Assembly (NCBI RefSeq): GCF_000484535.1
Contig: NC_022600.1
Coordinates: 2,170,001-2,234,000, forward strand
Length of the DNA: 64,000 nt
Reading direction: 5' to 3'
Source of the DNA: Gloeobacter kilaueensis JS1
GTDB lineage: Bacteria; Cyanobacteriota; Cyanobacteriia; Gloeobacterales; Gloeobacteraceae
Numbering within the stretch: the stretch's first letter is position 1; every line of letters starts with the position of its first letter. The notes beneath the pieces were generated by a model that had not been told where the DNA came from, did not search any database, and saw nothing but the letters and a program-made list of their open reading frames with translations. Positions 4,437 through 58,025 of this stretch are shown one piece after another. Position numbers and translations under genes: made by a program.

Positions 4437-4480
4437 ACCTGACCTCCCACCCCCCCCGGTAAGACAAGTCTGAAACTGAC

Positions 4481-4523
4481 TTCACCCTGCCCATCGGCAG
4501 CCCAGTTACAGTGAACCCCCCCT
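4481..4523 (+). repeat. Dispersed repeat copy 1, left part (interrupted by the IS)
   Basis: This stretch reads TTCACCC ... GCCCAGTTACAGTGAA followed by seven C and T. The segment GCAGCCCAGTTACAGTGAA plus a C-run recurs at about 36157-36183 and 57214-57240, each time inside a longer unit. Here the unit stops at 4523 and resumes at 5807, with the IS110-type element between. The other two copies are uninterrupted. Confidence 0.85.
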
Positions 4524-4525
4524 CG

Positions 4526-4531
4526 TATATT
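4526..4531 (+). promoter_or_regulatory. -10 half of a split junction promoter
   Basis: TATATT sits 2 bases inside the left CT core. On a circularised element (right end, one CT, left end) it would lie exactly 17 bases downstream of TTGACT at 5788-5793, giving a good sigma-70 promoter facing the left-end RNA and the transposase. Junction promoters of this kind are known for IS110 circles. Confidence 0.65.
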
Positions 4532-4537
4532 GCTATT

Positions 4538-4700
4538 GGTTCCAAGGTAGCGGTGAGGACTGTGCCCCCCCTTGCGGCTTTGACCGCGTGGAAGAGATTG
4601 TCCCCCGCTATCAAGGACCGGCAAAGCTGAACCGTATCGAGTGGCACTGACCACGTATCACGAGGCTAGACTTTTGCCGTCCTGCGGAACTTGCCTACCT
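4538..4700 (+). ncRNA. Predicted IS110 bridge RNA
   Basis: Two guide loops can be drawn by eye. Loop 1 (target): CCCCCCCT at 4565-4572 equals the left target at 4516-4523. It is followed by hairpin GCGG-CTTTGA-CCGC (4574-4587) and then GAAGAG (4591-4596), the reverse complement of the right target CTCTTC (5807-5812). Loop 2 (donor): ACCGTATC at 4631-4638 equals the element's right end (5800-5807). It is followed by hairpin GTGG-CACTGA-CCAC (4641-4654) and then ACGAG (4660-4664), the reverse complement of the left end CTCGT (4522-4526). The order left guide, hairpin, right guide in both loops is that of IS621-type bridge RNAs. The RNA ends given are approximate. Confidence 0.72.
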
Positions 4701-4727
4701 CCTCTGAAGCTTCAACTGGAGACACTC

Positions 4728-5756
4728 ATGCAGCGAGACGGTTCACAAAACGACTATCAGCTATTTGTCGGTATTGATGTGGCGGCACTCACTGTCACTG
4801 CCGCCTGGCTGCTCACCCACGCAAAGCCTACCGCTGCCATCACACTGCCCCAAACCCCCGAAGGACACTGCCAATTGGCCGAACGCTTACTCGCCGTCTG
4901 TCCCACCGCCGCTGAGGTGTTAGTGGTCATCGAAGCCACAGGCTCCTACTGGATGCGACTGGCCACATTTCTGGCGCTCAAAGGTTTTGCCGTCAGTGTG
5001 GTCAACCCCGCTCAGTCTCATTACTTTGCCAGGGCACTGCTCAAGCGTTCCAAAAGCGATGCGCTTGATGCCCAGACGCTTGCCCAACTCGCTGCCGCCC
5101 TGCAACCTGGTCTTTGGCAGCCGCCGCCTGAGATTTATTACCAACTCCAACAGCGCCTGCAGCATCGCGATGCCTTGCTGCAGCAACGCCAACAACTGCA
5201 CAACCAGTTGCACGCTCTGCGGCAATTTCCGTTGGTGGTGGCGGCGGTACAAGCGAGTCTGGAGCAGTTGAGCCACACCTTCGATGAGCAGATTGCGCAG
5301 ATGGAAGCTCAGCTAGAAGCGCTGCTCGCCCAAGACTCGCTTTGGCATCAAGCTGCAACCAAGCTGCGCACTATCAAAGGCATTGGGTCTGTCACCGCTG
5401 GGTGGGTGTTGGTGAGTACCCTCAACTTCGGCTGCTGTGCAACGGTGGAAGCGGCGGTGGCCTACGCGGGTCTCGCTCCCCGCTCCCATCGTAGCGGCAC
5501 CAGCCTTCATAGACCAGAGCGCATCGGCCATGCAGGCAATGCCCGCTTACGCACGGCGCTGTATATGGCGAGCTTGAGTGCGATCCGCTGCAATCAGCAG
5601 ATTAAAAGCTTTTACCAGCGGCTACGAGCAGCCGGTAAACCGGCAAAGGTAGCGCTTTGCGCTGCGGCTCGCAAACTCTTACACATTGCCTGGGCGGTTG
5701 TGAAAACAGACACGCCTTTCGATGCAGAGCACGGCAGGTTGGTTTGCTTGCAGTAG
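4728..5756 (+). CDS. IS110-family transposase/recombinase
   Basis: DEDD-type recombinase of 342 aa, full length. The RuvC-like N-terminal domain carries D17 (FVGIDVA), E69 (VVIEATGSYW) and D111/D114 (KSDALDAQTLA). A helical Gln-rich linker follows (about 130-205). The C-terminal Transposase_20 domain has the helix-hairpin-helix-like KGIGSVTAG (about 217-225) and the presumed catalytic serine in RSGTS (S256). I chose the ATG at 4728 because GGAG precedes it by 6 bases and the protein then begins, as usual, a few residues before the first catalytic Asp; the frame stays open upstream to 4641. The product would catalyse RNA-guided excision and insertion of the element. Confidence 0.93.
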   Translation: MQRDGSQNDYQLFVGIDVAALTVTAAWLLTHAKPTAAITLPQTPEGHCQLAERLLAVCPTAAEVLVVIEATGSYWMRLATFLALKGFAVSVVNPAQSHYFARALLKRSKSDALDAQTLAQLAAALQPGLWQPPPEIYYQLQQRLQHRDALLQQRQQLHNQLHALRQFPLVVAAVQASLEQLSHTFDEQIAQMEAQLEALLAQDSLWHQAATKLRTIKGIGSVTAGWVLVSTLNFGCCATVEAAVAYAGLAPRSHRSGTSLHRPERIGHAGNARLRTALYMASLSAIRCNQQIKSFYQRLRAAGKPAKVALCAAARKLLHIAWAVVKTDTPFDAEHGRLVCLQ

Positions 5757-5787
5757 GGCGGAGGAAGAGAAGAAAGGAGGAGGCTGC

Positions 5788-5793
5788 TTGACT
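5788..5793 (+). promoter_or_regulatory. -35 half of a split junction promoter
   Basis: TTGACT lies near the right end of the element, pointing outward. Joining the ends gives 13 bases + CT + CG = 17 bases to TATATT at 4526-4531. In the inserted state it faces the right-hand flank, where no good -10 is seen. Confidence 0.6.
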
Positions 5794-5806
5794 CTCAATA
5801 CCGTAT

Positions 5807-5896
5807 CTCTTCTCCTCTGCCCGGCGGGGCAGCCCCCCATTCGGGGGGCAGGAGGAGGAGAGTGGGGGGCAGGGGGGGTGTGGAGGGGTGGGGGAC
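5807..5896 (+). repeat. Dispersed repeat copy 1, right part
   Basis: Resumes the repeat after the IS: a C/T-rich arm, a hairpin (CCCCCC-ATTC-GGGGGG within GGGCAGCC...GGGGGGCAGG), then a G-rich tail GGGGGGCAGGGGGGGTGTGG / AGGGGTGGGGGACAG. The same tail ends copies 2 and 3. It stops 7 bases from the marC stop codon. Four or more G-runs of at least four with short loops make a G-quadruplex possible on the + strand. Confidence 0.8.
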
Positions 5897-5902
5897 AGAC
5901 CG

Positions 5903-6514
5903 CTACTTAAGCAGTTCGACGACGCCGTTGGCCATCAGCTGCAGGGCGATGGCAACGATCAAAAAGCCGAGGATCTGGTTGAAGGCGCGGGTACCGGTCC
6001 GGCCCAGCCACCGGAGAACTGGTTCACCCAAAAGCAAGCTGAGGTAGAGCACACCGCCCACCAGGCCAATACCGATAAGCGAACCAAGGTAGTCCGTCCA
6101 GCCGGTCGCTTTGCCCGACAGCCCGATCACTACCCCAATTGCTCCTGGGCCACTCACCAGCGGCATCGCCATCGGTGCGAAGGCAATGTCAGCGCCGGCA
6201 CTCTGCTGGGCAACGACTTCCTCATCCTCGTGAGCGCTCACCATCTGCCAGCCGGTGTGGGCAACCAGTAAACCGCCCGCGATCTGCAGCACGGCAAAGG
6301 AAATGCCGAAAAATTCCAACAGCAGCCTGCCCGCCACCAAAAAAAGCGCCAGCAGCCAGATCACGTGCAGCGTCGTCAGGCGCGCCTGACGCTGGCGGTG
6401 CGCCGCCGAAGCCGCGCTTGTCAAACCATAAAAAATCGGCACCGCACCGAGCGGGTCAGTGACCGGAAACAGCGCCAGGAAAGTCCCGGCGGCAGAGCCC
6501 AGCACGTCCCACAT
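5903..6514 (-). CDS. MarC family inner-membrane protein
   Basis: UPF0056/MarC integral membrane protein of 203 aa, about six transmembrane helices. The N-terminal motif LALFPVTDPLGAVPIFYGLT and the central GGLLVAHTGWQM and AFAPMAMPLVSGPGAIGVVI match the family's duplicated (N/D)P-G motifs. The function in cells is not established; the old link to multiple antibiotic resistance has been withdrawn. Its 3' end abuts the G-rich tail of repeat copy 1, so that repeat may serve as its terminator or 3' UTR. It is convergent with phoH and the IS. Confidence 0.9.
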   Translation of the reverse strand: MWDVLGSAAGTFLALFPVTDPLGAVPIFYGLTSAASAAHRQRQARLTTLHVIWLLALFLVAGRLLLEFFGISFAVLQIAGGLLVAHTGWQMVSAHEDEEVVAQQSAGADIAFAPMAMPLVSGPGAIGVVIGLSGKATGWTDYLGSLIGIGLVGGVLYLSLLLGEPVLRWLGRTGTRAFNQILGFLIVAIALQLMANGVVELLK

Positions 6515-36092: not shown

Positions 36093-36255
36093 CTTCACCC
36101 ATCCCCCCTGCAGCTGCTCCTGCCAGACTCCCTGATTGTCCTCACCCATCCCCCCTGCAGCCCAGTTACAGTGAACCCCCCCTCTCCTCCCCTGCCCAGC
36201 GGGGGCAGGGGAGGAGAGGGGGGGCAGGGGGGGTGTGGAGGGGTGGGGGACGGTC
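36093..36255 (+). repeat. Dispersed repeat copy 2 (uninterrupted)
   Basis: The clearest copy. Order: CTTCACCCATCCC and CTGCTCCTGCCAGACTCC arm; GCAGCCCAGTTACAGTGAA plus seven C; a perfect 16-bp hairpin (36182-36197 with 36203-36218, loop AGCGG); and a G-rich tail with runs of 7, 7, 4 and 5 G that could form a G-quadruplex. It lies just after the TrxR-like gene. The rest of the 328-base gene-free stretch (36072-36399) holds nothing further that I recognise, apart from a possible -10 TGATAC upstream of the DUF2237 gene. Confidence 0.85.
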
Positions 36256-36399
36256 TTAGTCACTACCCAAAAAAGCAAAAGAACGACCAGCTCCTATTGG
36301 ATCCCAAGCCCCCTGACCTGCGCGGTGTGAGCTTGAAGCTGGTCTGATTGAACGCACCAGTGTGATACGGTAGGCGCATCAATCTGTGCGGGCTTTTCG

Positions 36400-46987: not shown

Positions 46988-48145
46988 ATGAAAAGTGTAC
47001 AGATTCACTGGGGCATTGCCGCTCTCGGGTTCTGCCTGGCCACCGGCGGCGCGAGCGCCGCCCAGGCCCAGACCTGCAACGCCACCTGGCAGGTTGTCCC
47101 GAGCCCCGCTCTGCAGTCGGGCGGGACGCTTGCCGGGGTGACGGCGATCGCCGCCGACAACGTCTGGGCGGTCGGTTCGCGCAATACCACAAACGGCCTG
47201 CTAAGGACGCTCATCGAGCGCTGGAACGGCAGCCAGTGGGCAATCGTTCCCAGTCCCAACCCCCTCAACTTTTCGAGCGATCAAGATTTGCTGGCCGGTG
47301 TGGCAGCCGTCTCGGCCACCGATATCTGGGCTGTCGGCAGCCACATCATCAACGGCACCCAGTCCCAGGGACTTGCCCTGCACTGGAACGGCAGGCGCTG
47401 GAGCGTCGTGCCCACCCCGAGCACTACCCTCGGCAACGCCCTGGTAGGGATCACGGCCATCGCCACAAACAATGTCTGGGCGGTGGGAACGAACGGCAAC
47501 GCCACCCTTGTCGAGCACTGGGACGGCAGCCAGTGGAGCATCGTCCCCAGCCGGAACGTACCGGGGGCGGAGGAGCAGATTCTCAAGGGGGTGACGGCGG
47601 TAGCAGCCAACGACATCTGGGCCGTCGGCTCTGTCGAGCCCCAGAGCGGTCCCACCCGTACCCTCACCGAGCACTGGGACGGCAGTCAGTGGAGCATCGT
47701 CCCCAGCCCGAACCCCGGAGCGCTCAACAACGTCCTCAACGGCACTGCTGCCATCGCCACAAACAACGTCTGGGCGGTGGGCTACGGCGACGGAGCGCCC
47801 GCCTTCGGCACCCTCACCGAACAGTGGAACGGCAGCCAGTGGCAGGTGATCCCCAGCGCCGACGCCAGTGGCCAGTTCAACATCCTGACGGCGGTGAACG
47901 CCCCCGCTGCCGACAATATCTGGACGGTGGGCTACACCCAGAACGTTGGCCTCAACCAGACCCTGAGCGAGCACTGGGACGGCAGCCAGTGGCAGGTGGT
48001 GCCGACGCCGAACGTCGGCACAGGCAACAATCAGTTGCTGGCCGTCACCAGCACCGGCACCAACATCTGGGCGGTGGGCTTCACCGGCAGCGGCACCTCT
48101 GCCCAGCCGCTCATCGCTTTGTTTTGCAACGGACAGTCTGGATGA
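46988..48145 (+). CDS. Secreted seven-repeat beta-propeller protein
   Basis: 385 aa with a signal peptide (IAALGFCLATGGASA, cleavage after AQA). The mature protein is seven repeats of about 48 residues with the pattern L-x-G-V-T-A-I-A-x2-N-x-W-A-V-G, then [LT]-x-E-H-W-[DN]-G-S-Q-W-x-[IV]-[VI]-P-[ST]-P-N. The first strand (ATWQVVPSPA) probably closes the last blade, as in a seven-bladed propeller with Velcro closure. GAAGAAGA-type enzymes are not indicated; no catalytic motif is seen. Probably an extracellular binding protein. The start has GGAGC 6 bases upstream. Confidence 0.8.
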   Translation: MKSVQIHWGIAALGFCLATGGASAAQAQTCNATWQVVPSPALQSGGTLAGVTAIAADNVWAVGSRNTTNGLLRTLIERWNGSQWAIVPSPNPLNFSSDQDLLAGVAAVSATDIWAVGSHIINGTQSQGLALHWNGRRWSVVPTPSTTLGNALVGITAIATNNVWAVGTNGNATLVEHWDGSQWSIVPSRNVPGAEEQILKGVTAVAANDIWAVGSVEPQSGPTRTLTEHWDGSQWSIVPSPNPGALNNVLNGTAAIATNNVWAVGYGDGAPAFGTLTEQWNGSQWQVIPSADASGQFNILTAVNAPAADNIWTVGYTQNVGLNQTLSEHWDGSQWQVVPTPNVGTGNNQLLAVTSTGTNIWAVGFTGSGTSAQPLIALFCNGQSG

Positions 48146-56962: not shown

Positions 56963-57102
56963 TGCGGCAATTTCCTGTCTCGCTTTCTAAACAGTACCCT
57001 GGGCCATGGATCCCTTCCTCTACCCAGGGGAAGACATGCCCATACCGAGTCTATTTAGTAACCAGAAGACCTGATCCCCGGCCCCTCACCCCTCACCCCC
57101 AG

Positions 57103-57127
57103 CCCCTCTCCCACGAGGGGAGAGGGG
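57103..57127. repeat. CCCCTCTCCC hairpin element
   Basis: Perfect 10-bp palindrome CCCCTCTCCC (57103-57112) with GGGAGAGGGG (57118-57127), loop ACGAG, preceded by CCCCTCACCCCTCACCCCCA. This short element is frequent between genes in many bacterial genomes. It lies in the 349-base gene-free stretch 56963-57311, whose other half is dispersed-repeat copy 3. Confidence 0.65.
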
Positions 57128-57150
57128 AGAATGACAACTCTGGCACTAAC

Positions 57151-57313
57151 TTCACCCATCCCGCCTGCCGCTGCTCCTGCCAGACTCCGTGATTGTCCTC
57201 GCTTATCCCCTCCGCAGCCCAGTTACAGTGAACCCCCCTTGCCTCTCCTGTCCCGGCGGGGGCAGGAGGGGGAAAGGGGGGCAGGGGGGTATGGGGAGGT
57301 GGGGGACGGTCCT
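57151..57313 (+). repeat. Dispersed repeat copy 3 (uninterrupted)
   Basis: Same unit as copy 2: TTCACCCATCCC and CTGCTCCTGCCAGACTCC arm, GCAGCCCAGTTACAGTGAA plus a C-run, a hairpin (CCTGTCCC / GGGGCAGG, weaker than in copy 2), then a G-rich tail GGGGGGCAGGGGGGTATGGG / GAGGTGGGGGAC. The tail runs into the rhomboid stop codon (57312-57314), just as copy 1 runs up to the marC stop. Confidence 0.82.
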
Positions 57314-58025
57314 AGTAGCGGTTATAAGGGTCCCCATCGCGGGCAAAAACATTGACCAGTACTGCCCCGACGATAAATCCGGCGGCGTGGGCCAGGTAGG
57401 CGACGCCCCCTTTGTCCATGTGAGGAACGTTGCGCACACTTAGAGCCGCGACACTGCTAAGGGCCTGCTGTACGAACCAGAAGCCGATAAACCAGATGGC
57501 CGGAATGCGAAAGGGAATCGGAATGAAGCCCAGGGGAAAGATCGCCTGCACCGGGGCGCGGGGAAACTTGACGATATAGGCTCCGAGCACACCGGCAATC
57601 GCTCCACTTGCGCCGAGGGAGGCAATAGACGAAGTGGGTTCGAGGTAGGTCTGGGCAAGAATCGATACCACCCCACAGAGGAGGTAAAAGATCAAGTAAC
57701 CCACAGGCCCCATACGGTCCTCGACGTTGTCGCCAAAGATCCACAGGTAGAGCATGTTGCCCGCGATGTGCAAAAATCCGCCGTGCAAAAACATCGCCGT
57801 GATCAGCGGCAGCAACAAACCCACGTCATTGAGCTGGCCGTGGAGGACCGCCCCGATTATCGGCGTCAATTTTGCCGGTACGGCGGCGTAGTGGTTGATA
57901 AAGCTTTCGAGCTGCTTGTCGTCGAGGGTGATCTCGTAAATAAAGACAAGGATATTGGCCAGGATCAGGCCGTAGTTCACCCAGGGAACGCGATAGCCGC
58001 GATTCTCATCCCAGATGGGGACCAT
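57312..58025 (-). CDS. Rhomboid family intramembrane serine protease
   Basis: 237 aa with about six membrane helices. The catalytic Ser is in LGASGAIAGVLGAY (GxSG) and the His in YLAHAAGFIVGAVL; the L1-loop-type GFLHIAGNMLYLWIFGDNVE carries the conserved H-x2-x-N. The site is complete. It cleaves membrane proteins within the bilayer; substrates unknown. Its stop codon lies in repeat copy 3. Confidence 0.92.
   Translation of the reverse strand: MVPIWDENRGYRVPWVNYGLILANILVFIYEITLDDKQLESFINHYAAVPAKLTPIIGAVLHGQLNDVGLLLPLITAMFLHGGFLHIAGNMLYLWIFGDNVEDRMGPVGYLIFYLLCGVVSILAQTYLEPTSSIASLGASGAIAGVLGAYIVKFPRAPVQAIFPLGFIPIPFRIPAIWFIGFWFVQQALSSVAALSVRNVPHMDKGGVAYLAHAAGFIVGAVLVNVFARDGDPYNRY

What the first reader, a model, noticed from the sequence alone, without database searches (positions are those of the whole stretch)
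36093..36255. Dispersed repeat that combines a perfect 16-bp hairpin with a G-quadruplex-like tail
Three copies in 64 kb (4481-4523 + 5807-5896; 36093-36255; 57151-57313), all in the same orientation and each directly next to a gene's 3' end. In copies 1 and 3 the G-rich tail ends within 0-7 bases of a - strand stop codon (marC, rhomboid), so it forms the start of those 3' UTRs. The position suggests a role in termination or mRNA 3' ends, or a MITE-like element with 3'-end preference.
Basis: partly seen in the sequence, partly recalled or inferred. Interest (0 to 1): 0.6.

Follow-up and report, generated by a model that had tools for sequence, protein, structure and literature searches.

The report
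Cyanobacterial hairpin repeat hosting RNA-guided transposon
About 51 copies of a hairpin-forming repeat sit mostly behind genes in the cyanobacterium Gloeobacter kilaueensis, and a mobile element of the RNA-guided IS110 family has inserted at exactly the same base of 17 of them; each part belongs to a known kind, and the 'G-quadruplex tail' and terminator reading is not what best explains it.

Summary
The repeat is real, but the finding describes only part of it. The genome is Gloeobacter kilaueensis JS1. The core GCCCAGTTACAGTGAA marks 51 copies plus one relic (both orientations); neither it nor the flanking arms has a family in 19 relatives. The unit is the centre of a modular, mobile-looking composite. 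About 14 copies keep terminal inverted repeats (AGTAGACGAAG), often next to TA, like an IS630/Tc1-type MITE. Others, including all three window copies, lack them, and some carry a second hairpin module. The inner hairpin shows paired changes.

The G-rich tail carries a G4 motif in 49/51 copies, but it can pair with C-rich sequence on its 5' side, and three copies have it as one arm of a palindrome.

The 3'-end preference holds: 23 convergent, 22 tandem, 4 divergent against 15/43/41% expected. It is the same on both sides, so a strand-specific RNA-G4 role is unsupported; no U-tract terminator was found in the copy scanned.

Copy 1 is split by a 1,283-bp IS110 element. All 17 genomic copies lie at the identical base of this repeat. 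Its leader folds like a bridge RNA whose guides match the target; Ktedonobacter relatives carry different guides that largely match their own targets. New member of known kinds.

The parts
36093..36294 (+). Copy 2 (the finding), extended: tandem C-rich 5' segment, core, inner hairpin, G-rich arm and remnant of the right-hand module
   Evidence: genome 2206252-2206294 = window 36252-36294
36140..36158 (+). C-rich 5' segment that can pair with the G-rich 'tail' (outer stem)
36160..36175 (+). Core GCCCAGTTACAGTGAA, a mostly unpaired bulge between outer and inner stem in the predicted fold
36176..36224 (+). Inner hairpin, 21-22-bp perfect stem in this copy, with paired changes across the family
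36225..36253 (+). G-rich arm/tail; canonical G4 motif, also one arm of a palindrome in three other copies
4459..4523 (+). Copy 1, left part, ending in the target CCCCCCCT
4524..5806 (+). IS110-family element, 1,283 bp, 17 copies in the genome, all at this site of the repeat; dinucleotide CT on both sides (4522-4523, 5807-5808)
4536..4680 (+). Predicted bridge RNA in the IS leader: two stem-loops with internal loops
4565..4572 (+). Predicted left target guide CCCCCCCT (same as target top strand, core CT included)
4591..4596 (+). Predicted right target guide GAAGAG (complement of target CTCTTC)
4631..4664 (+). Predicted donor loop: ACCGTATC (4631-4638) matches the right end of the IS; TATcACGAG (4656-4664) complements its left end
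4728..5756 (+). IS110-family DEDD transposase, 342 aa, intact frame
   Evidence: PF01548 4.1e-28, PF02371 1.3e-19
5807..5902 (+). Copy 1, right part: rest of hairpin with nested CCCCCCATTCGGGGGG mini-hairpin, G-rich arm, up to the marC stop
57077..57311 (+). Copy 3, extended: second hairpin module (CCCCTCTCCCACGAGGGGAGAGGGG at 57103-57127), linker, core 57217-57232, imperfect inner hairpin, G-rich arm up to the rhomboid stop at 57312

Best explanation
A species-specific, modular, non-coding repeat family of mobile origin (MITE/REP-like, about 51 copies). Its centre is a strong hairpin with a possible outer C-rich/G-rich stem. Shown: copies have a common layout with alternative modules; a subset ends in inverted repeats, often next to TA; the inner stem shows paired changes; copies avoid gene starts and collect behind gene ends in both orientations. 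Inferred: it spread by transposition of a TA-targeting parent now absent or unrecognised, and persists where insertion does little harm. On top of it, an IS110-family transposon uses the repeat as its landing site: its leader encodes a predicted bridge RNA with left guide CCCCCCCU and right guide GAAGAG that pairs with CCCCCC-CT-CTTC at the foot of the hairpin, so the recombinase inserts at that base in one orientation. Insertion there leaves flanking genes intact and offers dozens of sites.
For: 17 of 17 IS copies (found both by left end and by transposase) lie at the identical base, 16 of 17 identical in sequence. All 17 are in repeat copies with a perfect CCCCCCCTCTTC match, against 17 of 34 unoccupied copies (Fisher p 2.8e-4). 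Guide pair in the leader: 8 of 20,000 dinucleotide shuffles do as well. The leader folds into two stem-loops with guides in the internal loops and aligns with the leaders of Ktedonobacter relatives. The position-equivalent Ktedonobacter right guide ACGTAAG matches right targets CTTACGT in 5 of 6 loci, and the left guide GGTGACAGC matches GGTGACAGCT in L133, L137 and L138. Mobile origin: inverted repeats and TA at 24 of 43 outer edges, same module order in many loci. Placement bias. Paired changes in the inner stem: 27 cells with both sides changed against 11.7 in shuffles, 0/500; score highest at zero slide.
Against: No autonomous element with the same inverted repeats showed up as a suitably spaced pair among inverted-repeat hits with up to one mismatch. 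All three window copies lack the inverted repeats, so the MITE reading does not cover them directly. The TA duplication was read from edges, not proved by empty sites. Left guide matches are poor in L134, L135 and L136, and the left donor guide mismatches the second core base. Shared ancestry inflates the paired-change counts. Gene calls were my own, not curated.
Confidence: 0.82

Rival explanations
1. The repeat is a working bidirectional mRNA 3'-end element (terminator or stabiliser) in a lineage lacking Rho; the hairpin stops RNA polymerase or blocks exonucleases for genes on either side.
For: Strong 3'-end and convergent bias; very stable fold on both strands, z about -5.3 and -5.6; cyanobacteria lack Rho and most transcription units in Synechococcus elongatus are not ended by known pathways (PMC13289151).
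Against: No U-tract terminator in copy 2; similar bias is reported for REP repeats generally (PMC3733652) and is expected from selection against insertion near promoters; PMC13289151 reports that non-canonical 3' ends broadly lack strong structure; only about 50 copies for 4,508 genes, and relatives lack it; 17 copies tolerate a 1.3-kb insertion.
Confidence: 0.2
2. G-quadruplex element: the G-rich tail folds as a G4 in DNA or RNA and this is the selected function.
For: Canonical G4 motif in 49 of 51 copies.
Against: The same G-run can pair with C-rich sequence in cis, and three copies have it as an arm of a palindrome; no preference for having the G-rich strand in the transcript (20 versus 19); in copies 1 and 3 the adjacent - strand mRNA carries the C-rich strand. 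G runs alone produce the motif.
Confidence: 0.05
3. The centre is an independently mobile REP-type palindrome moved as single-stranded DNA by a tyrosine (Y1/RAYT) transposase, nested in a separate MITE.
For: Many copies share little beyond the centre, about -40 to +115; wobble pairs are kept almost only on one strand (61 versus 4 in 35 distinct hairpins), as if that strand is the one that folds.
Against: Module order and junctions are constant across copies, pointing to common descent; no GTAG/CGTC tag was recognised at the palindrome foot; a RAYT gene was not searched for (budget spent); wobble positions are largely shared by descent.
Confidence: 0.2

Closest known systems
IS621/IS110 bridge-RNA elements inserting into REP sequences (PMC11208160; PMC1525189: ISPpu9, ISPpu10, ISPa11, ISPsy8; seekRNA, PMC11187229)
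   Same: DEDD transposase, non-coding leader with target and donor loops, CT core, insertion at one base of a dispersed palindromic repeat
   Different: Host repeat and guides are different; the repeat is a composite in a deep-branching cyanobacterium; nearest transposases found are in Ktedonobacter at 53-58% identity
REP / BIME palindromic repeats (PMC3733652)
   Same: Intergenic stem-loops between convergent or same-direction genes, G-T pairing, species-specific families
   Different: Longer unit (115-350 bp), no recognised GTAG/CGTC tag at the hairpin foot, RAYT link not tested
Bacterial MITEs of TA-targeting (IS630/Tc1-mariner) type
   Same: Short, non-coding, terminal inverted repeats at both ends in about 14 copies, often with TA at the edges
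   Different: No autonomous partner found; many copies lack the inverted repeats; contains nested hairpins and an IS110
Small dispersed repeats of cyanobacteria, nested in one another (Elhai 2008, from memory; paper not read)
   Same: Tiny palindromes (CCCCCCATTCGGGGGG; GCCCCTTTTGGGGCCAGG) inserted inside other repeats
   Different: Sequences not compared; membership not tested

Membership tests
IS110 family (bridge-RNA group) | DEDD plus C-terminal Transposase_20 domains | tested here: met
   PF01548 4.1e-28, PF02371 1.3e-19
IS110 family (bridge-RNA group) | Non-coding leader with target loop whose guides match the insertion site | tested here: met
   by sequence and predicted fold; the RNA itself has not been observed
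IS110 family (bridge-RNA group) | Donor loop matches the joined IS ends | tested here: inconclusive
   8-base left match with a mismatch at the second core base; right guide discontiguous
IS110 family (bridge-RNA group) | Site-specific insertion with a CT core | tested here: met
   17 of 17 copies
MITE (TA-targeting) | Terminal inverted repeats | tested here: met
   AGTAGACGAAG-like ends on both sides in about 14 copies; not in the three window copies
MITE (TA-targeting) | TA target duplication | tested here: inconclusive
   TA at 24 of 43 edges; no empty-site comparison
MITE (TA-targeting) | Autonomous partner with the same ends | tested here: not met
   no suitably spaced inverted pair other than repeat copies, at up to one mismatch; transposase genes were not searched
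REP | Dispersed intergenic palindrome with paired changes | tested here: met
REP | Linked RAYT (Y1) transposase | not tested
Intrinsic terminator | GC hairpin followed directly by a U-tract | tested here: not met
   on copy 2: 0 found, 0.8 expected in shuffles
G-quadruplex element | G-rich strand preferentially in the transcript | tested here: not met
   nearest 3' end on the tail side in 20, on the core side in 19

The most novel reading that the evidence does not exclude
The G-rich strand of the hairpin is selected to fold as a single strand: stems change almost only in ways that keep wobble pairs on that strand (61 versus 4), pointing to an RNA or single-stranded-DNA stage in how the repeat moves, or to a 3'-end function in a lineage without Rho.
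Probability: 0.15. Interest if true: 0.6.

Novelty: new member of a known kind. Interest (0 to 1): 0.42.

Why it matters
It gives a clean natural case of an IS110 element, of the RNA-guided family, whose predicted guides match a genome's own repeat family. Seventeen occupied and seventeen unoccupied matching sites lie in one chromosome, and Ktedonobacter relatives carry different guides that largely match different targets. It would be a useful test bed for bridge-RNA rules outside proteobacteria, and a caution that a hairpin plus G-run beside stop codons need not be a terminator or a G4.

Tried and rejected
Rfam scan of the window: no match. Core in 19 relatives: only scattered one- or two-mismatch hits at the level of the reversed control, no family. 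Flanking arms in 19 relatives: none. A partial match to the IS left end at 4453667 was inspected and is not another copy. The exact inverted-repeat hit at 199820 is not an element. Outer stem as a conserved pairing: paired changes do not exceed shuffles, so it is reported as possible, not shown.

Full report
Identity. The window is positions 2170001-2234000 of a single 4,724,791-bp contig, the size published for Gloeobacter kilaueensis JS1 (PMC3806779), an early-branching cyanobacterium. Searching that paper for repeat and transposon terms found no description of this repeat; its genomic 'repeat' hits are all CRISPRs.

Observation. All three reported copies are there. The core has 3 exact hits in the window, where 0.21 are expected with 3 mismatches allowed, and 54 hits with up to 2 mismatches in the genome against 0 for the reversed control. 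Reading them shows 51 repeats, one relic that has lost the hairpin (L051), and two chance hits. Neither the core nor the flanking arms has a family in 19 relatives.

Anatomy. The shared centre runs from about -40 to +115 around the core. It holds a C-rich segment, the core, an inner hairpin and the G-rich tail. The predicted fold pairs the tail with the C-rich segment, leaving the core as a bulge. Paired changes support the inner stem but not clearly the outer one. Three other copies carry the tail sequence as one arm of a palindrome, CCCCACCCCTCCACACCCCC...GGGGGTGTGGAGGGGTGGGG. So the tail is better described as half of a stem than as a separate G4 element, although the G4 motif is present in 49 of 51 copies.

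Larger element. About 15 copies continue upstream, and about 20 or more downstream, into arms ending in AGTAGACGAAG / CTTCGTCTACT. Fourteen have a match at both ends, 226-406 bp apart, and TA stands at 24 of 43 edges, as in IS630/Tc1-mariner-type MITEs (established knowledge). A second hairpin module, CCCCTCTCCCACAAGGGGAGAGGGG, has 17 genomic copies with up to 3 mismatches, most of them just upstream of this repeat. Tiny palindromes are nested in several copies. The window copies lack the inverted repeats, so they are either decayed or belong to a shorter lineage.

Placement. With a codon-usage gene caller on the fetched loci, 49 copies could be classed: 23 convergent, 22 tandem, 4 divergent. 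In 113 other gaps, intergenic bases are 15.5% convergent, 43.3% tandem and 41.2% divergent. The excess and the deficit are each significant. The nearest gene end is a 3' end in 39 of 49, on the tail side in 20 and on the core side in 19. The same bias is described for REP repeats (PMC3733652), and avoidance of promoters is the simplest cause. Two copies had no complete gene call on one side (L033, L053) and were left out; in L064 and L033 a predicted frame runs into the repeat.

The IS110 element. Copy 1 is interrupted at 4524-5806 by a 1,283-bp element with an intact 342-aa DEDD/Transposase_20 protein. The genome has 17 copies by transposase and by left end, 16 of 17 identical, every one at the same base of this repeat and in the same orientation to it. 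All occupied repeats read CCCCCCCTCTTC at the site; among unoccupied ones half do (Fisher p 2.8e-4). The leader contains CCCCCCCT (4565-4572) and GAAGAG (4591-4596) on either side of a small hairpin, arranged like the left and right target guides of published bridge RNAs (PMC11208160); 8 of 20,000 shuffles do as well. Ktedonobacter relatives (53-58% identity) share the leader layout but carry other guides (GGTGACAGC and ACGTAAG in L133, L137 and L138). Their insertion sites read GGTGACAGCT on the left in five of six loci and CTTACGT on the right in five of six; in L134, L135 and L136 the left guide matches its site poorly. In L135 and L136 the site lies inside an inverted repeat (CCCGCTAC...GTAGCGGG), so these relatives may also use palindromes. 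The RNA-guided step is inferred from sequence; no RNA was observed.

Function of the repeat. Copy 2 has no terminator-like site. Structure on both strands is strong, so a bidirectional 3'-end role in a Rho-less lineage (PMC13289151) remains possible, but nothing here demands it. Stem changes keep wobble pairs almost only on the G-rich strand (61 versus 4 in 35 distinct hairpins). This may be selection for folding of that strand, strand-biased cytosine deamination, or a few shared ancestral changes; it is unexplained.

Verdict. Real and non-random, but made of known kinds: a REP/MITE-like composite repeat and an IS110 element that homes to it.

Noticed in passing
L058, L013, L065, L015, L124 (19-bp palindrome ACCTGGCCCCAAAAGGGGC, 7 exact copies): A tiny palindrome is inserted inside several different repeats, once inside another tiny palindrome (L065); looks like nested small mobile repeats.
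   Followed up: partly
51 repeat copies, inner stem: Wobble pairs occur on the G-rich strand (61) and almost never on the other (4); cause unknown.
   Followed up: partly
L133-L138 (Ktedonobacter): Relatives of the IS110 element are inserted at GGTGACAGCT/CTTACGT sites; in L135 and L136 these lie within an inverted repeat, so they too may target a dispersed palindrome.
   Followed up: partly
window 57300-57314 and 5890-5905: The end of the repeat abuts the stop codons of the rhomboid and marC genes; in copy 3 the stop codon lies in the element's own conserved end (GGTCCTAG), so insertion may have supplied the stop.
   Followed up: no
window 46988-48145: A predicted gene with at least five related units, mostly about 150 bp apart.
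   Followed up: no
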